Below are positions 1 to 61,002 of a stretch of DNA of 64,000 nucleotides, piece by piece; the stretch's first letter is position 1, and each line of letters starts with the position of its first letter. The DNA is taken from positions 39,208,419 to 39,272,418 of the forward strand of contig CM034239.1 in NCBI GenBank assembly GCA_019916065.1. Reading direction: 5' to 3'. Position numbers and translations under genes: made by a program. Under the pieces are notes generated by a model. It had not been told where the DNA came from, did no database searches, and was given only the letters and a program-made list of their open reading frames with translations. Source of the DNA: Vitellaria paradoxa (Eukaryota; Streptophyta; Magnoliopsida; Ericales; Sapotaceae).

Positions 1-79
1 CTTCGTTCAGGATGGCTCGGAGTACCCCAAGGACTTAACGGCAAATGAGGAGCAAAAGTGTAAAAAACAAGGCTTCTGT

Positions 80-110
80 GGTCCGGACCACCTGGCGCAC
101 GGTCCGGACC
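80..110 (+). promoter_or_regulatory. U3 palindrome pair
   Basis: Two perfect GGTCCGGACC decamers start 21 bp apart, about 67 bp upstream of the TATA box at 177. They are GC-rich words in an AT-rich LTR. A role as a promoter element is inferred from position only. Confidence 0.6.
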
Positions 111-200
111 ATAGTATGGTGGATCGTCGCACGGGCAATTTAAGTTTTAAGGTTTCTTTTACAAGATATAAAAGGACTGCTTGAGGGCCGACTAGGGACA

Positions 201-1631: not shown

Positions 1632-3139
1632 TTTGGGTTCAAATCTGAATTAGGGGTTTGTTCAAAAATATTGAGAATATTTTAAATCCAAAAGTTAGTA
1701 CCAGTGATTTGAAACGAATATGGTTAAAAACTTTTGTTTTCGAAAGTCTTTTCAAACAAACGAAATCAGAATTGAACTTGAATCCTACTTTTAATTTGTT
1801 CAAAAGTATTAATCAATGATAATCGAAGACCAATACCAGTGATTTCAGCGAATATGATTAGAGGTTTCTGTTTTCGAATTTTTTCAAAACAAGTTAAAAG
1901 AGGTTTGAAAATAGTAGATCCTTACGCATGAGGTTTTGCAACCCATGCGAAGGGTTTGCACACATCCCATAGTGTTTTATGAACTACCCTTTCTTGATTC
2001 GTTGAATCAAGAACTAGGATTTCTACGCTAACATAACTTTAAACGAAACAAAAACAATCAACAAACTCATATTTAATAGATCTAATGAATAAAAAAGTGA
2101 AACAATATTATTAAAAGCAAAAACGAAAGTAAACATACTCTGAAATCGAATCCGAAACGTTGTAACAAAAGATTGCTATTGTAGCGAAGCTTACACAAAC
2201 TCTAAAAGTCTTCCAAGCATTCTATGAACATTAAAAATCTCTAAAAACTATCTAAAACTCTAAAAGAAAAGTGAAAAACTAAAGTAGGAATCTCCCTTGG
2301 TTCGGCTGTGCAATAGGGTTTATAAAGAGGTACGCAGAAACCCTAAAAATTACAGCTTAAACTCGCGCATGCTCGGCTACTGTGGTTCAGATCATCTGGA
2401 AGGGGGTCCGGACCACAGAATGGTCATTTTCACAATTAAGCTCACTGTGGTTTGGACCATTTGGGTGGGGGTCTGGACCACAGAACCTTGATTCCCTAAA
2501 TTCTGCTTGAAGTCGTCTCTTTCTTCTGACAGCTTTCTATCCTCAACTTCCAACGCGATTTTGACCTTGAAGACGATTGATTTAAGCTTTGGCTAAAACA
2601 CGAAAGTTATAGCTCTTCGAGTCTTCTTTCCAATCCATAAAGAATCAGGTTAATCAAAGTTGTGAGTGAGAAGATATGGTCAAAATACTGATAGGGACTT
2701 AAGCTGGAACTTCTGCTGCATACCACTTCGACCATCTTGAACCTCAGACCTTCTCCTTCTCCTTCGCAGCCATGGGAACTGATTCTATTCCTTGGGATGG
2801 TGTTTGGGACATTTGAGGAAGTCTTGGAAGTCATTGCACATGTCGGCCTTTTTGTCTTCAAGCTGTTTTCTCGATGTGTGCCAAGTGTTCGGCGAAATGC
2901 CCCAAAAGACACTAAAGCATATTCTTGCACTTCCTTACTACGGCTTGCTTTGGCTCCTCCTCACCTGCACTCTTAGTGTTATTTCAAGCTAAAACACCAA
3001 ATTATATCACCTGAACCACACCAAGAACAAGAACGCATGGAGATGAAATAATTAAGCTAAAAGCTCGCCAATAACAAGCAGAATTGCATAATTAGCATGC
3101 TCAATAGATATAAAATTATACAATAATGCATACTAATCA
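1632..3139 (-). repeat. Athila-like LTR, minus strand, truncated at left by the 1-1631 LTR
   Basis: Read on the - strand it starts TGATTAGTATGC at 3139 and has the same U3 body as the 2-kb LTRs elsewhere in the window (GGTTGGAAAGAAGACTC, AGAAAGCTGTCAGAAG). It then carries GGTCCGGACC-type palindromes (2384, 2405, 2449, 2470; spacing 21-44-21), a TATA-like TTTATAAA near 2320, the leader hairpin near 1990-2020 and tandem hairpin units (CAAAAGTT at 1689 pairing with AACTTTTG at 1729). Its U5 end is missing, presumably left of the window. It interrupts an env-like region at 3140. Confidence 0.8.
2384..2479 (-). promoter_or_regulatory. U3 palindrome cluster, 21-44-21 spacing
   Basis: Four decamers related to GGTCCGGACC start at 2384, 2405, 2449 and 2470. 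The second is perfect and the others carry one to four changes. The spacing is the same as at 16645-16740. Confidence 0.55.
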
Positions 3140-3960: not shown

Positions 3961-5709
3961 TGATTACACTTGAAAAGTGTAATTACAAACTCCACATTTT
4001 GATACTCATTGATGCATTTAAGTAGTTAATTTCAAAGTTTTATCGTTATTTTATTATTTATAGTGTTTATTCTCTCAATTGCAGGTAAAAGGGGAAAATA
4101 CGTGAGATTAGCAGTGTTGAAAGTGGCTTCCGAGGAGGAAAAAAATGGTCCAAAGTTCAAGATAGTTGAAGTGGTGTGCAGCTGAAGTTCCAGCTCGACA
4201 CCTTGTCAGTATTTAGACCATAACTTTTCACTCACAACTCGGATTGACCTGATTCTTTTTGGGTTGGAAAGAAGACTCAAAGGGCTACAACTTTCGTGCT
4301 TTAGCCGAAGCTTGAATCGATCGTTTGCGAGGTCAAAATTGCAGTGGAAGTTGAGGACAGAAAGCTGTCAGAAGCAGCAAACAAGAAGCAGAACTTGAAG
4401 AACAAAGTTTCTGTGGTCCGGACCACCTGCCAAATGGTCCGGACCACAGTGTGTTATGCGCGCGTGGCTTCACTCCGTCTTTTAGGGTTTTCTTTACAAC
4501 TTCTTTATAACATCTGCTACATGGCCGACCCAAGGGAGCCCTAGTTTTTAGTTCTACATACTTTAGGAACCTCTTTTTCATATTTTCAGATACTTTGAGA
4601 GTTTTAGAATAGCTTTTTTAGAGAGTTTTCAATTACTTGTCTTGTTTATGGAGTTGTTCGATGTTTGGTTATTCTTCGCTGCACTGCTCTTTCATTACGT
4701 AGTTTCAGAGTTGCTTGCCGTGTAAGTTGACTTTCGTTTCGTTAATTTAATATATGATTTATTATTTTCTAGTGGTAGATCTAATGTTTATGCTTTCGTT
4801 TATTGCTTTCGTTTCGTTTAAAATCATGCTAGAGTAGAAACCCTAGTTCTTGATTCACTGAATCAATGAAGGGTGATTCGTTATAAGTTGAGGGATGAAC
4901 GTAGATCCTTCGCATGGGTTTTGAAAACCTATGTGAAGTGATCTACAATTTTCAAATCTGATTTGTTTGTTTAGAAAACTTTTTAACTCGAATGTTTTTA
5001 TCATAAAATATTTCCAGTTTTATTTTCCATAATGAAACGTGAGTTTAAAACTGTGTATCGAGAAATTTTGGAATCTATTCACTCCTAAATCAGATTTGAA
5101 CTCGAATGTTTTTATCATAAAATATTTCCAGTTTTATTTTCCATAATGAAACGTGAGTTTAAAACTGTGTATCGAGAAATTTTGGAATGTATTGAAAATC
5201 TTTCCCAATCTATAGATCCTTTGACGTGAACTATAGATTGTATTTTAAATCATCCCTTGGCAAAATAACGAATTACCTGGAATTGTGAAAGTTGAATCAA
5301 GAACTCTTTTAAATATTATTGTCTTAAGTTAAATCACTTTTGCTTGAATTGATTGCATTGCAAGTTCTAAATTAGAATAGCTTTTAATTTGAAAATATTC
5401 AATTCTCTTTACATTTAAGTTCAGTAACTTTAAATTGCTAAGTTATTTCAAAGTAGTTTGCATTCTAGTTTAAATATCCCTTTAATTAGTTTGTATCTTG
5501 TTTAATCCTTCAATTTGCAATTCTCTTAAATCCAATTTAATTCAATTGAAATCTCAATTCACATTTAAACCTAAAATTCATATTTGAACTTAGAAACTGA
5601 AACTTATAGGCTCCCTGTGGATTCGACCTCGGACTCACCGAGATTAAAACTACACCGCACACCCTTGCACTTGGGGGTTAATTAGCACTGCACTATTCAT
5701 AAGCGGTCA
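3961..5709 (+). repeat. Solo LTR, 1749 bp, TSD GTAGC
   Basis: A TG...CA unit starts TGATTACACTTGAAAAGTG and ends AAGCGGTCA. It is flanked by perfect 5-bp duplications GTAGC (3956-3960 and 5710-5714). No internal region or second LTR exists, so this is a solo LTR left by LTR-LTR recombination. It has the GGTCCGGACC pair (4415 and 4436), a TATA-like TTTATAAC at 4504 and the conserved U5 end. A segment of about 80 bp with TTTTTATCATAAAATATTTC is duplicated in tandem (about 4990-5070 and 5103-5180). Confidence 0.95.
4415..4445 (+). promoter_or_regulatory. U3 palindrome pair
   Basis: Two perfect GGTCCGGACC decamers start 21 bp apart and are embedded in a larger inverted repeat (CTGTGGTCC ... GGACCACAG, 4411-4449). 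The TATA-like TTTATAAC is about 60 bp downstream. Confidence 0.6.
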
Positions 5710-16436: not shown

Positions 16437-17946
16437 TAAATTTAAAGTTTTGATATTATTTTATAGCTTACAAGTTTTATCATCTTATTTGTAGGGGAAT
16501 GGATGAGAAAGGCGAAGTTAATAGTATTGGAGAGGGCTTAGATGATGAAGGAGGAGTTGTGGTTCAAGCTTCATCAAAGATGTTTGGACCAACCCAAGGA
16601 CTCAGAGCGAAGGAGAAAGAAAAATAGAGCAACTAGCATTCTGGGGTCCCAACTCCTCCTCAAATGGTCCGGACCCCAGTGAGTGATCTAGAGGAAGAAT
16701 ATATTCTGGGGTCCCCACCCCTCCTTGAAGGGTCCGGACCCCAACAAAGCCCTGGGCAGGCGTTTTACTTCATTTTTCTAGGGTTTTTCTTAACCTTTAT
16801 ATGTCACTTTTGTATGATTGAGCAAGGGGACGCCTCTTTTTGATTACTACACTTTAGATTGAGAGTTAGATTAGGTTTCTGATTGATTTTAGAGTGATTT
16901 GTACGCTTGGACGTGTGGATCTATGGGGGGTTTTTGGAGTTTTCATCATTGTTTTCGCGTTACTTGTTCATCTTTTCTTTTACATCGAAGTTACACTGTA
17001 AGTTGCACTTCGATTTACTTCAATTTATTTCGATTTACTTCATAATATAATGTTTTGCTTGTTTCGATTCCCTTTTTGCATGATGGATTGTTCTTTTATT
17101 GTTTTTGTGATGTTCAAAGTAGTTATAGCATAAAACCCTAATCTTGATTCAACGAATCAAGAAAGGGTAGTTCATGAAAAGCCTTGGGGTGTTCGTAGTC
17201 CCTTCGCGAAGGTTGCGAAACTTGTTGTGAAGGGATATACCTTTCACAAATCTATTTTTTTCTCTATTTCGAAAACATTCGAATACAAAAATTTTTAACC
17301 AAATCTGTGTGAGATCACTGGTATGGATTTTTGTAACCAATTGTCAAATACTTTCGAATAGACTTAAAAATCAGATTTTGATTAATATTTTTGGTGTTTA
17401 ATTGAAAAACCCTAGGAAACAAAGGTCTTTAACCATATCCACTTGAGATCACTTGTACTGGCCTTTGTTTACAACGTTCTCAAAACTTTTCAAGTTAAAC
17501 CCTAGTTTTCAAATAAACACACCCCAAGGCAAAGTAGTGAACTACCCGGACTTAACGTTGAATCAAGATCCTTACTATTATTGAATTGCAATCCAACTTA
17601 ATTTTAGTTATAATAGAGTAACTTGAAGTTTAAATTATTTTTGTTGAATTTGTTTTAACTTCTTACCATCTAGTTTAATTCGTTCTTAAATTCTGAATTT
17701 TTTGTTTATTTTAATTTTAAGTGGTTGAAATTGAAATTGTTCTTAATTTTATTAAACCCTAGAATTTAGTAACCTTGAACTTCAAACTTGATTCTCTTTA
17801 GTTTTAGAATTCATTTCACATCCTAAAAACTAAAACACATTAGGCTCCCTGTGGAATTCGACCTCGGACTTACCGAGTTTTAAAACTACAACTGCCCTCT
17901 TGCACTTGAGAGGTAGAAACCCTATTACATATTTTAGGGTCAGTCA
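16437..17946 (+). repeat. 3' LTR (F), remaining 1510 bp
   Basis: This continues 8105-8170; together they make an LTR of about 1.57 kb ending GGGTCAGTCA. It holds the palindrome cluster 16645-16740, the leader hairpin (17135-17168), two covarying tandem hairpins (17284-17335 and 17417-17470) and the U5 hairpin CTCGG-ACTTA-CCGAG. The partner 5' LTR lies outside the window. The Tekay LTR at 17947 probably marks the insertion target. Confidence 0.85.
16645..16740 (+). promoter_or_regulatory. U3 palindrome cluster, 21-44-21 spacing
   Basis: Decamers start at 16645 (GGTCCCAACT), 16666 (GGTCCGGACC), 16710 (GGTCCCCACC) and 16731 (GGTCCGGACC), about 60 bp upstream of a TTTATATG box near 16793. Confidence 0.6.
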
Positions 17947-34964: not shown

Positions 34965-36518
34965 TGATTACACTCAGAAAGTGTAATTACAAACTCCCTA
35001 ATTTAACACTTAGTAATGCATTTGAATAATTAAAGTTGAAGTTTTATGGTTATTTTGTCACTTATTCTTCCATTTTTCCAATTGCAGGGAAAAGGGCAAA
35101 GAAGTTGAAGTTTATAGCTATGGAAATGGCCTAGAGGATGAAGAAAAATTCATGGTTCAAACCTCACCTTGGATGGTCAAGACTAGCCCAAATACCCAAC
35201 ATGAAGGAGGAATAGAAGCAACACAAAACATACTCGTTGGTCCGGACCCCCATATCAAATGGTCCGAACCATAGTAAGCTATTCTGGCCGAAATCAAAGT
35301 GAATAGCCGAAATCAAAGTAGAGGCCATTCTGTGGTTCAGACCACCAAGTACCTAAAAGCGTGATTTTAAAACATATCTTCTAGGGTTTTCTTGGAGATA
35401 TATATTCCTTATGAGCAGTCGCACGGGGGAGAACCCTTTTTCATTATTCTTCAGATACTTTGAGAGTTAGATTAGTTTGAGATTAGTTTGGAGAGTGTTT
35501 TTAAGTTCAGGAAGATTGTCCATGGATGCGTTTGGAGCTATTTTATTGATTGTTGCTGTGATATTTCATTATTATCTTTCTGAACAATTTACATCATAAG
35601 TTCTATTATGTTTCATTCTTTAATACAATGATTCGTTTATTTCAAGTGATAGATTGAATGTTTGAATGCATGTTTATTGCTTTAATCGTATTTAAAATGA
35701 TAGTAGTGTAAACCCTAGTTCTTGATTCAACAAATCCAGAAAGGGTAGTTCACGAAAACCACCTTGGGATGTTCATAGTTCTTTTGCATGGGTTGTAAAA
35801 CTTAGTGCATAAGGATCTACTCTTTCTAAACTTATTTCAACTTGTTTCGAAAACATTCAAAACCAAAAATCTTTAACCACATTCGTTTGAAATCGCTGGT
35901 ATGGGTTTTTGATTAAAATCATTCAAACACTTTCAAACAAGATTAAAAATAAGATTTGAATTCACGCCTTCTTTCATTTGTTTGAAAAACTTTCAAAAAC
36001 AGAGGTCTTTAACCATATTCACTTGAAATCACTGGTATTGACTATTGATTTAAACATTCTTAACACTTTTCGAACTAAACCCTAATCTAGATTTGAATCT
36101 AAACATCGTAAGGTGAAATAGTAAGCTACCCGGACTTGAAGTTGAATAAAAAACCTAGTTCATATTAAATTTGCAATACGATTTAATTTTCATCACACTT
36201 ACTTTACTTTGAAATTTAAAGTAGTGTTCTTAAATTTAGATGAATTTCTTGAGATATTGCTTAGTTCATTAAAACCCTGAATTCTTAAGTTTATTAGTTT
36301 AATTGCTTTAAATTGAATTCCAACTTTGCAAACCTAGGATTTAGTAAAAACTGAACTCCAATCCTTACTTGAACTCAAATTTAGAATTTCCTTCATAACC
36401 TAGGAACTGAATAACATTAGGTTCCCTGTGAATTCGACCTCGGACTCACCGAGTTTAAAACTACAATTGCCCTCTTGCACTTAAGAGGTAGAACCTAAAC
36501 ATATTTTAGGGTCGATCA
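34965..36518 (+). repeat. 5' LTR of element L
   Basis: TGATTACACTCAGAAAGTG ... GGGTCGATCA, 1554 bp. Palindrome words lie at 35239, 35261 and 35334, a TATATATT box near 35398, a leader hairpin near 35720, tandem hairpins at about 35870-36060 and the U5 hairpin CTCGG-ACTCA-CCGAG at 36439-36453. The 5-bp target on the left is ACTAT (34960-34964); its copy lies outside the window. Confidence 0.9.
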
Positions 36519-36624: not shown

Positions 36625-38185
36625 ATGCAACTTAGATCAAGTAGGATAATTATAGTAGAACCTGAATTAGAAGACCCTTCCTATTGTCCTGAATCTTTTT
36701 CCACAAATTCATATTCCAGAGTCTCATTCACCACCTCATCTTTTCACTCAATGGCAGAAGTAAGAGGGGAGGGTAGTGTGCATAGGGACAATGATCCCCA
36801 AGAGGTTCTAGGTTTCATTCCTTTGAGAGATATCACATTAACCCTGTTAGGCAGACTACACCATCATACATAATCTTGCCTTTGAATAGGGGAAACTTTA
36901 CTCATAGGCCAGGAATTATCCAACTTCTTCCCACTTTCCATGGCCTTGATTCTGAAAATCCCTACAACCATCTTAGGGGATTTGAGGAAGTGAGCAACAC
37001 ATGTGTAGATCACAATGCCAATGAGGATGTAGTGCGTCTTCAACTTTTCCCCTTTTCTCTAAAGGACAAAGCCAAGTTTTAGTGTAATTCCCTTCGTCTC
37101 TATTCTATTGGAACGTGGCGTGAAATGCAAACTAAGTTCCTTGAGAAATATTAATTTTCCAAACCATAAAACTCAATACTATAGGTGACAGATTACCACT
37201 TTTTCTTGCAAACCTAATGATAATTTCTATCGAGCCTGGGAAAGGTTTAAGGACCTCTTGATGGCTTGTCCTCACCATGGTTTTGAACCATGGAGGTTAG
37301 TTAGCATCTTCCATGAATCCCTCACTCCTAGTCTTAAGCAACTAGTTTCTACCATGTGCAATGGTACCCTGTTTGATAAGACTACGAAGGATGCCATGGA
37401 CTTTTTTGACATGGTAGCTAAGGGCTCTAATGATTGGGAAATTGGACCACCTTCTTCCTTAGAGCATAGAAATCCCACACCTAATAGGCACTTGGAGTTG
37501 AGTGAGAGCGATGATCTATGGGCTAGAATAGCCGTATTGTAGCATAAGCTCGATTCTTTAGAGTTTAAGAATAAAGAGAAATTGGTTGAGGTAAACGTGA
37601 TTTGCATTGCATGTGACCAGATGGGGCATAACACTAATTCATGCCCCGAAATACCCTTGCTGAGAGAGATTGCCTATGGTCAAGCCTATGTCAATAACGC
37701 CCCTAACCGTCCATTTCACAATAGGGGCCAAGGAAATGTCTCTTACCCACTAGGTGGGAATGTTACTTATCCAGGGGGAAACCAATCTTCCAATGCTTAT
37801 CCCCCGGGGTGGAGGAACCATCCTGGTTTCTCGTGGAGGAATGAGAATTCAAGTCAATCATTTCAGTCACCGCCTCCCTTGCCACCACCCCAATACCAAT
37901 AACCCAGTCTTGTTGCATACCAACCTCCACATAAGAGACCTCTTGAGGACACTCTTGATCACTTCATGTAACAGCAGCTAAACATCAATAACTAAGTGAC
38001 TTGGGCTTTAGATGACATTAGGGTTCAAGTTTCCAAGTTGACACAGGCCATAAGTACCACTCAGAGTGGTAAACTCCCGTCACAACCTTTTCCCAACACG
38101 AAAGGCCAGGCAAACATGACAGAGTTGTCGACCTGGGGTGCCACCCCACATGAGCAAGTTCAAGCTGTCACCACTTCGCGGAATG
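36625..38185 (+). pseudogene. Athila Gag with CCHC zinc knuckle (element L), broken
   Basis: Start at 36625 (MQLRSSRIIIVEPELEDPSY), 100 bp after the PBS. A frameshift near 36840 joins to PSYIILPLNRGNF and the Athila Gag core (LLPTFHGLDSENPYNHLRGF, LFPFSLKDKAKF, TWREMQTKFLEKY, CPHHGFEPWRLVSIFHESL). The zinc knuckle CIACDQMGHNTNSCP lies at about 37605-37650, followed by a Gly/Asn/Pro-rich tail (GGNVTYPGGNQSS). Stops near 37081, 37541, 37900 and 37970 look like TGG or CAG transitions. It is cut at 38185 in EQVQAVTTSR and resumes at 56670 (SGKIIQKPTDP). Confidence 0.85.
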
Positions 38186-38904
38186 TGATTACACTTGAAA
38201 ACTGTAATTACAAACTCCTTAATTCAACACATATTAATGCATTTAAAAAAGTAAAGTTGAAGTTTTAGTATTATTGTATTACTTTTACTTTTATTGTTTT
38301 ATTTGCAGGAAAAATGGCAAGGATGTTGAAGTTTATAGCTATGGAGAGGGCCAAGAAGATGAAGAAAAAGTCATGGTTCAAACCTTACCTTTGATGGAAA
38401 AGACTAGCCCAAAGACCCAACCTAAAGGAGGAAGAAAAGCAAACCAAGAGATACCAGGGGGTCCCGACCATCACCTCCAGACGGTTGGGACCACAGTGCA
38501 CTTAAATTGAAGAAATAGCTTTCTGTGGTCCTGACCCCCCTCCAGACGGTCAGGACCACCGTGACCTTTGTAGCCCGGGTGAGAAGCTTATCTTTTAGGG
38601 TTTCTTTGTGTCTTTATAAAGACCCATTGCACGGCCATGAGGGGGATGCCTCCTTTGAAGATTCCACAACTACATTGAGAATTAGATTAGGTTTGAGAGT
38701 GATTTGTACGTTTTAAAGTTTTGTTGATGGATGTTTTTAGAGTTTTATTCTTCATCTTTGCGTTGTTAGTTCATCTCTTCTTTTACGCACAAGTTATATC
38801 GTAAGTTGTATTTCGTTTCACTCTTTAATATGATGTTTCATTTATTTTAATTACTAATTAGCATGATTGAATGTTCGTTTATTGTTTTTGTGATGTTTAC
38901 AATG
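38186..38904 (+). repeat. 5' LTR of element M, first part
   Basis: This starts TGATTACACTTGAAAACTG; the palindrome cluster at 38460-38557 has spacing 23-44-21 (GGTCCCGACC type). It is interrupted after CAATG (38900-38904) by element N and resumes at 50181. Confidence 0.92.
38460..38557 (+). promoter_or_regulatory. U3 palindrome cluster of element M
   Basis: Decamers start at 38460 (GGTCCCGACC), 38483, 38527 and 38548. Each pair forms an inverted repeat. The 3' LTR copy (55466, 55489, 55533, 55554) keeps the spacing. Confidence 0.6.
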
Positions 38905-52973: not shown

Positions 52974-55191
52974 CCCTTTTGTCTTCATTTCATTTGTACA
53001 TAGTAGATTAGATTTTTCATTTTCTTATTTTTATTGTTTTTTTTTTAATTTGATTCTCTTCCTTTATTTTCTTTTACTTTATTTCTATTGCTTCTTTCGT
53101 ACCAACCCTTTTTCTTGTCCTATTTTTATTTCATTTTATGTCTAACCTTTTCTTTTGAATAGTTTCTTTTGTTTTCTTCAAATAAGGAAGCTCTTAAGGT
53201 AATACCCTTTCTCTCCTTTTTATTTAGTCTTGCACTTTCAATTTTGGTACTCCATTATATATAATTGCTGTTGTTGGGAGTGCTGTAGAATCTAGGTTGG
53301 GGGTGTTTTGGGTGATGCCTTAAGGGGCTTGAATAATGGGTGCATGCTTGGTTTAATTTGTGCTATGTTCTCAGCTGTGCCTTTTATGGCTATTATTTCA
53401 TGCTCATCATCATGCTCACTTTGCACACTACAGACCCACTTATGCATCATAGTTCTCACATTGAGGACAATGTTTAGTTTAGGTTGGGGGTAGAGTTCGC
53501 ATGACACTTTGTGCTAAAACTGTCAAATTTTTCAAAATTTGAGCTTTTTTTAGCTTAAATACATGACTTAGCACATTTATACTTGCATATTGGCCTTTTT
53601 TGGTTTGGTTGATTGTGAAATTGAGTGAGATAGTGATAAGTGAATTTTGTTCAAGCATTAATACGAAACTTAATTCAAGTTGAGTGTGTTATGACCTTGT
53701 GCATTTTCGTGACTTTCATGGAGAAGAGCTTATGTGCTTAGGAGTAGATTTTGTTTGTCATTGGTTAATTAAGCATTCTTAGACTAGGTGGAGACCTATA
53801 CCCCTAATGGTGAGCTTTTGAGCCTATTATTTCTTTTCTTGAGGGGTTGCACATATTCACAGCTCTTTCATTCTTCACTTTGGTTTTCAATGCACTAATT
53901 GCATCGCACACACTTGCATGAGTTTCACTTGGCACATTATGAGTTGTTGCAAGCTTTGAACATGATACTAGGCCATCTTTGCTATTGTTTGGCCTTTTTA
54001 TCCTTTCTTGATATGAAATTGCCCTAGGAACCAACTTGAAGCCTTTTTAATAAAGTGTGTGATAAATCTATATATTTTTTCTTTGGTTCTGACCTTATAT
54101 ATTGTTCCTTAACCTCGTTCACACATTTTTAAGCCTTACTCTCACATGTTTTGGGTTATGAAAAGTGCCTCAATGTCAGTGATATGAGTGGGGGTTGGGA
54201 ATGGAAACTTTTGAGAGCATATTGAGAGGGAATATTGGGTGGAGAATTTAGCTTATGTTTATTTCATGATTTCAAAAAAAAGAAAAAAAAAAGAAGAAAA
54301 AAGAGAAAAGAAAGAAAAAGAAAAAAAAGAAAAGAAAAAAAAGTTTGTTATTCCTTTTTGCTTGTGTAATTTTGGGACTTGTGCATTTTATTATAATTAT
54401 TTAGAATGTCCTATGAGTAGTTTGCAAGTTTGTGAATAAGATTCGTGTTGTAGTTCTTCTTGGGGTTGGAAAAGAAATGGGTAGTTTGGGATTTGTGTGC
54501 ACTTGAACATCTTTATCCCAAGACACGTGCTTTGATTTCCATATCTTCTATTGTTAACCATTACCCCTGGCCAAGTTACAACTAAAACAAATACCTAGTG
54601 GATTCTAAGCAAGCAACTCTTGTATCGTGCATATAGTGGTCTTGTGTACGTTGTGTGATGTGATCTTTTGCATATGCATTGGAACATTATCATGAGCTGT
54701 CCACTTTGAACTTCAATTCAGTTCACTCACTTGTTTGTGGGGTTATGTGCAACTAGGATAGCATTTTATGCTAATAGGAATGTGTAAACCCTTGAGAAGT
54801 GAATTTCTTTCTATAAGTAGAATCCTGTGAGCTTTTGAAGTCAAAACTAGTTCTGTTTATACTCTTGCGACTTTGTTGAATGAATGAAACAATTTTGCAC
54901 ACATGTTTTTTCTACTTTGATAGTCCATGTATTTATCCTTAGTACTTGGAAATTACACATGATATTTGGATTTTGTGGGTAGATTCACTGCAAACCCTCA
55001 CGAGACCTTACTCGTCCACTAAGGGGAACCTAGGGGTTTAAAGGGCTTGCTACACGTAGCTAAGAGTAGCTGTGTTTCCAACAAAAAGAAAAATAGGATA
55101 GTAGTTGTATCTCATTTTAATAAAGAACATCATGTATTTCATTTTAATAAAGAGCATTGCTAGGGGCTAGCAATGTTCAAGTTGGGGGTTG
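52974..55191 (+). other. 3' non-coding region of element M
   Basis: No gene. Landmarks are AGGTTGGGGG words near 53295 and 53482, CTCACATTGAGGACAATG (about 53455), an A/G tract (54275-54342), the conserved double-hairpin block (54986-55050) and AAGTTGGGGGTTG immediately before the 3' LTR as the likely polypurine tract. Confidence 0.8.
54275..54342 (+). repeat. Homopurine A/G tract
   Basis: About 68 bp of A with scattered G, 850 bp before the 3' LTR, matching tracts in E, G and N. Confidence 0.8.
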
Positions 55192-56669
55192 TGATTACAC
55201 TTGAAAAGTGTAATTACAAACTCCCTAATTCAACACATATTAATGCATTTAAATAAGTAAAGTTGAAGTTTTAGTGTTATTGTATTACTTTTACTTTTAT
55301 TGTTTTATTTGCAGGGAAAAGGGCAAGGATGTCGAAGTTTATAGCTATGGAGAGGGCCAAGAAGACGAGGAAAAAGTCATGGTTCAAACCTCACCTTTGA
55401 TGGAAAAGACTAGCCCAAAGACCAAACCTAAAGGAGGAAGAAAAGCAAACTAAGAGATACTAGGGGGTCCCGACCATCACCTCTAGACGGTTGGGACCAC
55501 AGTGCACTTAAATTGAAGAAATAGCTTTTTGTGGTCCCGACCCCCCTCCAGACAGTCGGGACCACCGTGACCTTTGCAGCCCACGTGAGAAGCTCCTCTT
55601 TTAGGGCTTCTTTGCGTCTTTATAAGGACCCATTGCATGGCCATGAGGGGGATGCCTCCTTTGAAGATTCCACAACTACATTGAGAATTAGATTAGGTTT
55701 GAGAGTGATTTTTACGTTTTAAAGTTTTGTTGATGGATGTTTTTGGAGTTTTATTCTTCATCTTTGCGTTGTTAGTTCATCTCTTCTTTTACACAAGTTA
55801 TATCGTAAGTTATATTTCGTTTCGCTCTTTAATATGATGTTTCGTTTATTTCAATTAATAAATAGCATGATTGAATGTTTGTTTATTGTTTTTGTGATGT
55901 TTACAATGGTTGTAGTGTAAAACCCTAATCTTGATTCAAGAAAAAGTAGTTCACGAAAATGCCTTGGGGTGTTCGTAGTTCCTTCTCGTAGGTTGCGAAA
56001 TCTCTTGCGAAGGGATCTACCTTTCACAAATCCATTTTTATCTATTTCGAAAACATTCGAATACGAAAACCCTTAACCATATCCATTTGAGATCACTGGT
56101 ATGGATTTTCATAACTAATTGTTTAAACACTTTCGAATAGGATTAAAAATCAGATTTAAATTCACTTCTCGTTTGTTTAATTGAAAAACCTTCGGAAACA
56201 AAGGTCTTTAACCATATCCGCTTGAGAACACTAGTACTAACCTTTGATTAAAATATTCTTAATACTTTTCAAACTAAACCCTAATTGAGATTTAAATAAA
56301 CGCATCCCAAGGCAAAGTAGTGAACTACCCAGACTTGAAAGTTGAATCAAGAATCTTTTTAATATCATGCTTGTTTTCTAATTTAATTTCTGAGTTAATC
56401 AATTTGCTTTAAAATTCAATTTTATTGCATTTGAATTTAATATCACAATTCTTTCACTCCAACATTCTCAACCTAACCATTCTCAGACATCCTATAAAAT
56501 CCAAAATTGGTTTAAATTAATTTAGGTTCACCTACTAGCTAAGAGAACAAGTCTAGAGCTTTTAATGAAGCCCTCCCTGTGGATTTGACCTCAGACTCGC
56601 TGAGTTTAAAACTACGAGTGCCCACTTGCACTTGAGAGGTAGAACCCAAACATATTTTAGGGTCGGTCA
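55192..56669 (+). repeat. 3' LTR of element M
   Basis: TGATTACACTTGAAAAGTG ... GGGTCGGTCA, 1478 bp, pairs with the split 5' LTR. Palindrome cluster 55466-55563. The U5 hairpin is in a compensated form CTCAG-ACTCG-CTGAG (56590-56604). In the first 150 bp I count about seven differences from the 5' LTR, so the insertion is not very recent. Confidence 0.94.
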
Positions 56670-60892: not shown

Positions 60893-61002
60893 TGTCCGGA
60901 CCCCCCAGACCAAACGGTCTAGACCACAGTATATATGCTTAGCCAAAGTTGTGAGGGGGACTAATCTGTGGTCTACACCCCCCACCCCGGACGGTCCGGA
61001 CC
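60893..61002 (+). promoter_or_regulatory. Palindrome cluster upstream of env-like gene (L)
   Basis: TGTCCGGACC, GGTCTAGACC, GGTCTACACC and GGTCCGGACC start at 60893, 60916, 60970 and 60993. This is the same 2+2 layout and word as in LTR U3 regions of GGTCCGGACC-type elements. Confidence 0.5.

What the first reader, a model, noticed from the sequence alone, without database searches (positions are those of the whole stretch)
16645..16740. Four-palindrome U3 module with fixed 21-44-21 bp spacing
Seen directly: decamers around GGTCCGGACC start at intervals 21-44-21 in LTR F (16645, 16666, 16710, 16731) and in the opposite-strand LTR at 2384-2479; 23-44-21 in both LTRs of M; 22-33-21 in both LTRs of N; 21 alone in the LTRs at 80 and 4415; 22 and then 73 in L. 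These are close to multiples of 10.5 bp. The palindromes have drifted in sequence but the spacing holds, and the N-family difference from M is 11 bp, one helical turn. The words sit 60-130 bp upstream of a TATA box. Inference: paired sites on one face of the helix for a dimeric DNA-binding protein, possibly a host factor.
Basis: partly seen in the sequence, partly recalled or inferred. Interest (0 to 1): 0.75.

Follow-up and report, generated by a model that had tools for sequence, protein, structure and literature searches.

The report
Phased palindromes in retrotransposon promoters
Many families of a plant's LTR retrotransposons carry the same small palindromic DNA word in pairs two helical turns apart, often at a fixed distance from a telomere-like box and a TATA box, which looks like a shared promoter design built from binding sites for a two-part host protein.

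Summary
Each "21" pair is one ~39-bp unit, CTGTGGTC-nn-GACC, 11-bp linker, GGTC-nn-GACCACAG; "21-44-21" is two units. In the 667-Mb host assembly GGTCCGGACC occurs 3934 times (reversed control 85). With spacings of 10-40 bp allowed there are 944 pairs (control 0), and 47 of the 50 listed lie 20-22 bp apart. Between units, with 23-53 bp allowed, there are 353 matches (control 0), and all 50 listed lie at 44-45 or 51-53. In 29 sampled families inter-unit distances gather at 33-35, 42-44, 51-56, 60-61 and 64-65. This fits helical phasing, but few classes are independent (p 0.02-0.06). New: a telo-box TAGGGTTT follows in 62 of 85 sampled modules (14 of 29 families); in 99 of 100 listed genome matches it lies 34-39 bp (mode 37) after the last palindrome, and a TATA box usually follows. 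Arms do not covary significantly, which argues against a conserved hairpin. Best reading: U3 promoter sites for a dimeric host factor. Class II TCP is the leading, unproven candidate: GTGGTCC is in 82 of 85 modules, but not in module F, the one reported. The layout resembles site II/telo-box promoters.

The parts
16641..16679 (+). F, upstream unit: sites 16645-16654 and 16666-16675, 21 bp apart; arms CTGGGGTCC / GGACCCCAG
16706..16744 (+). F, downstream unit: sites 16710-16719 and 16731-16740; the 41-bp stretch 16703-16743 is 88% identical to 16638-16678 (period 65)
16779..16786 (+). F, telo-box TAGGGTTT, 38 bp after the last palindrome
16796..16801 (+). F, TATA-like word TTTATA
76..114 (+). 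single unit, sites 80 and 101; telo-box variant TAAGGTTT 148-155; TATAAA 167
2380..2483 (-). two units, sites 2384, 2405, 2449, 2470 (LTR on the minus strand); telo-box 2338-2345; TATA 2321-2326
4411..4449 (+). single unit, sites 4415 and 4436, both exact; telo-box 4483-4490; TATA 4504-4509
No recognisable partner of the third site
60893..61002 (.). module not in the finding: sites 60893, 60916, 60970, 60993 (23-54-23), no telo-box found

Best explanation
The module is the upstream part of the LTR promoter: one or two (up to four) copies of a unit made of two palindromic sites, GGTC-nn-GACC, about 21 bp apart, with a conserved extension CTGT/ACAG on the outer sides. In about half of the sampled families it is followed by a telo-box at about 37 bp and a TATA box some 16-23 bp after the start of the telo-box. 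Shown: words, order, spacings, their recurrence in many LTR families, and that spacers diverge while lengths hold. Inferred: each palindrome is bound by a dimer of a sequence-specific host protein; two dimers sit on one face of the helix in a unit and further units are added at about whole turns, so that they can act together on the core promoter. Leading candidate factor (about 0.35 on its own): a TCP protein of class II, because the outer half-site is GTGGTCC(C), the published class II site and the geminivirus conserved late element; together with the telo-box this would resemble the promoters of genes active in cycling cells.
For: 3934 exact palindromes against 85 reversed; 944 pairs within 10-40 bp against 0, 47 of 50 listed at 20-22 bp, 21 of 23 distinct linkers at 20-22. 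Inter-unit: 353 against 0, all 50 listed at 44-45 or 51-53 of 23-53 allowed, 36 distinct stretches. Out-of-sample: in 20 loci picked only for the two inner half-sites, a partner site with at most 2 mismatches lies 20-23 bp away upstream in 18 of 20 and downstream in 17 of 20 (ties were broken toward 21). Telo-box: 62 of 85 modules; 627 genome matches (330+297) against 0, 99 of 100 listed at 34-39 bp of 24-54 allowed; TATA-like word in 50 of 52 telo-box modules. Spacers of equal length (36-38) differ: mean ungapped identity 0.56, 185 of 373 pairs below 0.5, and the region is not generally conserved. Outer flank C-T-G/A-T conserved on both sides without having been selected for. GTGGTCC in 82 of 85 modules, exact GTGGNCCC in 24 of 85, controls 0 and 1 (20 of the 85 were fetched by a pattern that contains it). 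TCP24 binds GTGGTCCC (PMC11288445, passages); the same word enhances a minimal promoter (PMC554758, passages).
Against: No binding, expression or chromatin data. Module F itself, and the modules at 35175-35261 and 60893, have no GTGGTCC, and most sites have G, not C, at the eighth position of the class II site. Class I word GGNCCCAC in 0 of 85 and site II TGGGCY in only 4 of 85 modules. 15 of 29 sampled families had no telo-box module by the criterion, notably the 51-53 class (1 of 11 loci). Families share ancestry, so the counts are not independent; lumped spacing classes give p 0.02-0.06 and fit a period of 10 slightly better than 10.5. Two families have 60-61 and one window LTR has 73.
Confidence: 0.6

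Rival explanations
1. Shared descent alone: the LTR families inherited the words and their spacing from one ancestor and there has been too little time for indels; no function of the spacing.
For: The families are related (window LTRs are 60-95% identical), and many copies are near-identical, so raw counts overstate independence. Lumped spacing classes are few.
Against: Module-to-TATA stretch is no more conserved than the rest of the LTR and has as many or more gap openings (id 0.67-0.82 against 0.69-0.83; 3.6-8.8 against 1.7-6.3 per 100 columns), yet word distances hold; spacers of equal length are often below 50% identical; L010/L012 share the LTR 3' end with window LTRs but have a rebuilt U3 whose L010 copy is an array of five sites, each 21 bp from the next; a 40-bp unit is shared at 88-97% between LTRs whose flanks do not align.
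Confidence: 0.2
2. A hairpin: each unit is an inverted repeat that acts as an RNA stem-loop in the 3' end of the genomic RNA, or as a DNA cruciform.
Against: Over 84 distinct units the centres of the two arms match as reverse complements no more than when shuffled (0.702 against 0.678, 263 of 2000 shuffles as high); with 56 distinct decamer pairs 0.527 against 0.477, 146 of 2000. L046, L056 and L067 have uncompensated or direct-orientation centres. L010 has no inverted arrangement with outer CTGT arms. The M-family change can be two CpG transitions.
Confidence: 0.08
3. Sites for a protein encoded by the retrotransposons themselves, such as an anti-silencing or trans-activating protein that recognises short repeated words (as recalled for VANC proteins of VANDAL elements).
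For: The word is 46 times commoner than its reversed form in this genome, and the places looked at are mostly LTRs, which suits a word that spreads with the element; outer and inner flanks differ, so the recognised unit may be longer than known plant motifs.
Against: No candidate DNA-binding protein was found or looked for; four window ORFs gave only protease, reverse transcriptase and integrase-tail domains, or nothing. The telo-box and TATA context points to host transcription.
Confidence: 0.1

Closest known systems
Site II / telo-box promoters of ribosomal-protein and other translation genes (PMC3022908, abstract and passages seen; Tremousaygue 2003 seen only as a reference-list entry)
   Same: Telo-box AAACCCTA/TAGGGTTT downstream of repeated TCP-type words, near a TATA box or start site; fixed topological order.
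   Different: Here the upstream word is the palindrome GGTCnnGACC with GTGGTCC halves, not TGGGCY (TGGGCY in 4 of 85 modules); distances are far tighter; the owner is an LTR retrotransposon.
Geminivirus conserved late element, GTGGTCCC, bound by class II TCP24 (PMC11288445 passages; PMC554758 passages)
   Same: Same core word GTGGTCC(C) in the promoter of a parasitic genome; direct-repeat forms of it enhance a minimal promoter.
   Different: Here two outward-facing copies in a palindromic, phased unit, present one to four times; eighth base mostly G; no viral transactivator known.
U3 BII boxes of tobacco Tnt1 (PMC3316501 passages; repeat structure recalled)
   Same: Repeated short boxes in the U3 of a plant LTR retrotransposon, stated there to bind defence-induced DNA-binding factors.
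   Different: Different superfamily (Copia, recalled), different word, no telo-box or phased palindromes reported in the passages seen.
as-1-like elements bound by TGA factors (two palindromes at fixed spacing; title seen only in the reference list shown)
   Same: Two palindromes at a fixed spacing read by dimers.
   Different: Word TGACG (recalled), closer spacing (12 bp between centres, recalled), no multi-unit array with telo-box.

Membership tests
Class II TCP binding site (GTGGNCCC) | exact GTGGNCCC | tested here: inconclusive
   Exact in 24 of 85 modules (4 of 10 window modules scored); the 7-letter GTGGTCC in 82 of 85; absent from module F. 20 of the 85 were fetched by a pattern containing CTGTGGTCC.
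Class II TCP binding site (GTGGNCCC) | bound by a class II TCP protein | not testable with these tools
   No binding data for this plant.
Site II / telo-box promoter | telo-box AAACCCTA near the TATA box | tested here: met
   62 of 85 modules, 14 of 29 families; exact TAGGGTTT in 8 of 10 window LTR positions checked, one-base variants in 2.
Site II / telo-box promoter | redundant site II words TGGGCY | tested here: not met
   4 of 85 modules. So it is like such a promoter, not filed as one.
Conserved hairpin / inverted-repeat structure | compensatory change between the arms | tested here: not met
   No significant excess over shuffles, although single units fold better than shuffles.
Helically phased array | distances between palindromes at multiples of about 10.5 bp | tested here: inconclusive
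   By family R(10.5) = 0.72-0.77, p below 0.0001 against uniform; classes counted once p = 0.02-0.06.
Athila-type Ty3/Gypsy LTR retrotransposon | reverse transcriptase placed in that lineage | not tested
   LTRs of about 1480 bp with TG...CA ends and a primer-site-like word beside one LTR and an Asp_protease_2 domain in the ORF overlapping the end of the LTR at 55189-56669; the lineage name is recalled.

The most novel reading that the evidence does not exclude
A retrotransposon promoter grammar convergent with geminiviruses and with proliferation genes: outward-facing class II TCP half-sites in palindromes, two per unit at two helical turns, units stacked at whole turns, then a telo-box at 37 bp and a TATA box. 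It would tie expression of many otherwise diverging LTR families to dividing cells through one cooperative TCP/telo-box complex, and the module would be kept, duplicated or rebuilt while the rest of U3 turns over.
Probability: 0.25. Interest if true: 0.75.

Novelty: new variant of a known kind. Interest (0 to 1): 0.6.

Why it matters
Repeated boxes in plant LTR promoters are known, but a spacing code shared by many diverging families in one genome is a natural experiment on how enhancer grammar is constrained. If class II TCP factors and telo-box proteins read it, it would explain when these elements are transcribed, link them to the same host factor used by geminiviruses, and predict that LTRs bring ready-made meristem-type promoters near genes. 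The spacing rule makes this testable with few constructs.

Tried and rejected
Considered and set aside: (1) four equal sites: the pair is one unit, duplicated. (3) Coding repeat: the 21-bp array of L010 also reads as 7-codon repeats, but no long ORF supports it. (4) Overall LTR conservation: not supported (the TATA ends of two of the six LTRs were set some 20 bp off, which changes little). (5) LBD-type site TCCGGA: centre varies between families; the motif is recalled.

Paper searches that gave nothing usable: (0 papers; 8 papers with GGTCCGGACC, none on plant LTRs by title; 0; 0 papers with telo-box + LTR retrotransposon + promoter; 3 papers, listing only), (listings only). Only the open-licence PMC library was searched, so no claim is made that this is unpublished.

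Sampling limits and dropped rows: the genome search prints only the first places, nearly all on contig C1 (50 unique places of 944 and of 353; 100 of 627). The 85 modules come from the window, 4 + 20 + 20 + 12 + 20 + 20 loci; they need two sites with at most one mismatch each within 70 bp, so weaker sites (16645, 2384, 40050) and the 73-bp pair at 35261/35334 are left out there; distances within 2 bp of a commoner one in a family were merged. Orientation was chosen by the better telo-box side, which favours finding one; others (both sides counted, controls; pattern search) do not have that bias. The nulls take distances as uniform. In 200 kb of arbitrary places only 30 sites within 2 mismatches were found, 11 in one piece. 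Planned counts for direct-orientation halves, for the free-gap inverted unit and for inter-unit gaps above 53 bp did not complete.

Full report
WHAT IS THERE. The window lies in a 667-Mb plant-type assembly of 71 contigs and is full of nested LTR retrotransposons. All palindromes and spacings of the finding were found at the stated places. GGTCCGGACC within two mismatches occurs 38 times in the window; 100 shuffles give a mean of 7.0 and a maximum of 17. In the whole assembly the exact word occurs 3934 times, its reversed form 85 times.

ANATOMY. In F a 41-bp stretch is repeated with 88% identity at a period of 65. Each copy is an inverted repeat: CTGGGGTCC ... GGACCCCAG in F, CTGTGGTCC ... 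GGACCACAG in most other LTRs. So 21-44-21 is two units. With gaps of 0-60 allowed between the outer halves (at most 3 mismatches in all), 44 hits in the window and the first 44 loci fall at gaps of 21 (28), 22 (4), 20 (2), 24 (1) and 37 (1), plus 8 at gap 0 that lie inside a single palindrome; first-order random sequences give 0.8 hits in all. Over 84 distinct units the outer flank C-T-G/A-T is kept on both sides and the two central bases vary most (the other eight bases were used for selection).

SPACING INSIDE A UNIT. GGTCCGGACC with a free gap to a second copy (10-40 bp start to start): 944 places, reversed control 0. Of the 50 listed, 39 are at 21, 5 at 22, 3 at 20, 2 at 19, 1 at 17; among 23 distinct linkers 14, 4, 3, 1 and 1.

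SPACING BETWEEN UNITS. GGACCACAG with a free gap to CTGTGGTCC (23-53 bp): 353 places, control 0. The 50 listed fall at 44 (32), 45 (1), 51 (3), 52 (1), 53 (13); 36 distinct stretches; at 70% identity they form 7 groups, three at 44 and four at 53. In 85 modules, 29 families at 80% identity, the inter-unit values are 33, 35, 42 (2), 43 (2), 44 (4), 51 (2), 53 (7), 54 (4), 55 (2), 56, 60, 61, 64 (3), 65 (2). The resultant length at period 10.5 is 0.72 (0.71 at 10, 0.69 at 11), with no random set as high in 20000; the same in the earlier set of 65 modules. Families are related, so I also counted each spacing class once: p = 0.06 for 8 classes, 0.02 for 6 classes in telo-box families, 0.03 for 13 distinct integers, and the lumped sets fit a period of 10 a little better than 10.5. 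Helical phasing is therefore likely but not settled.

OUT-OF-SAMPLE CHECK. Twenty loci were fetched only because they hold the two inner half-sites. The predicted partner site (at most 2 mismatches, searched at 12-40 bp) lies at 20-23 bp upstream in 18 of 20 and downstream in 17 of 20; the reversed word reached 2 mismatches in 1 of 20 on the upstream side, the only side checked.

TELO-BOX AND TATA. Downstream of the last palindrome, on the LTR's strand, stands TAGGGTTT. Counting both flanks of 65 modules, it occurs (at most one mismatch) 52 times at 33-39 bp against about 1 per 7 bp elsewhere; control words 0-3. Genome-wide GGTCCGGACCACAG followed by TAGGGTTT with a free distance of 24-54 bp gives 330 + 297 matches, control 0; of 100 listed, 65 are at 37, 15 at 35, 14 at 38, 2 at 36, 2 at 39, 1 at 34, 1 at 43. 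A TATA-like word follows in 50 of 52 telo-box modules. The telo-box is not universal: 62 of 85 modules and 14 of 29 families; of the 20 out-of-sample loci all 9 of the 44 class have one (38-40 bp) and 1 of 11 of the 51-53 class.

IS IT JUST LTR CONSERVATION? In 15 pairwise comparisons of six window LTRs the module-to-TATA part has identity 0.67-0.82 (rest 0.69-0.83) and 3.6-8.8 gap openings per 100 columns (rest 1.7-6.3). Spacers of equal length between the last palindrome and the telo-box have a mean ungapped identity of 0.56; 185 of 373 pairs are below 0.5. So words and distances hold where the rest does not. L010 and L012 share the LTR 3' end with window LTRs but have another U3; in L010 five sites follow each other at 21 bp. 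L054 and L067 have a third site added at 22 and 21 bp.

HAIRPIN? Single units fold better than shuffles (z -2.2 to -7.2, five units), as any inverted repeat must. But the arms do not covary significantly. I rate the hairpin low.

WHICH FACTOR? The outer half GTGGTCC is in 82 of 85 modules and the full class II TCP site GTGGNCCC in 24 of 85; controls 0 and 1; class I GGNCCCAC 0; site II TGGGCY 4. Module F, the subject of the finding, has GGGGTCC instead, which weakens the TCP reading there. Published: class II TCPs bind GTGGNCCC, TCP24 binds the geminivirus element GTGGTCCC (PMC11288445, passages); direct repeats with this word enhanced a minimal promoter, while most spaced inverted repeats tested did not (PMC554758, passages), a point against reading too much into the inverted arrangement. 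Telo-boxes with site II words mark ribosomal-protein promoters (PMC3022908, passages); telo-box binding proteins co-occur with TCP motifs at some sites, though TCP proteins were not enriched in their complexes (PMC13132431, passages).

VERDICT. A real, genome-wide promoter module of LTR retrotransposons with preferred spacing; most likely binding sites for a dimeric host factor, TCP class II being the best candidate; a new variant of the known kind of repeated U3 boxes. The telo-box at 37 bp is the firmest new fact.

Noticed in passing
L010:1097-1293 and L012:1122-1213 (C1:13.7 Mb and 23.9 Mb): LTRs whose U3 is rebuilt: L010 has five strong palindromes in a row, each 21 bp from the next, not in the inverted unit; the LTR 3' end still matches window LTRs.
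   Followed up: partly
L046 (four units, 21-53-21-35-21-53-21): Module amplified to four units; its 40-bp unit is 88-97% identical to units of LTRs (L047, L049, L070) whose flanks do not align, as if units were exchanged between families.
   Followed up: partly
L027, L001, L005, L024, L050, L067, window 35154 and 16581: A weaker, degenerate further unit or site about 63-65 bp upstream of the first strong site in many LTRs (often with its own 21-bp partner).
   Followed up: partly
LTR ends, e.g. window 55190-55216 and 38184-38210: The LTR 5' end itself is a near-palindrome (TGATTACACTTGAAAAGTGTAATTACA).
   Followed up: no
window 16742-16778, 4446-4482 and other spacers: Several spacers between the last palindrome and the telo-box hold a GCGCG-type word.
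   Followed up: no
   Followed up: no
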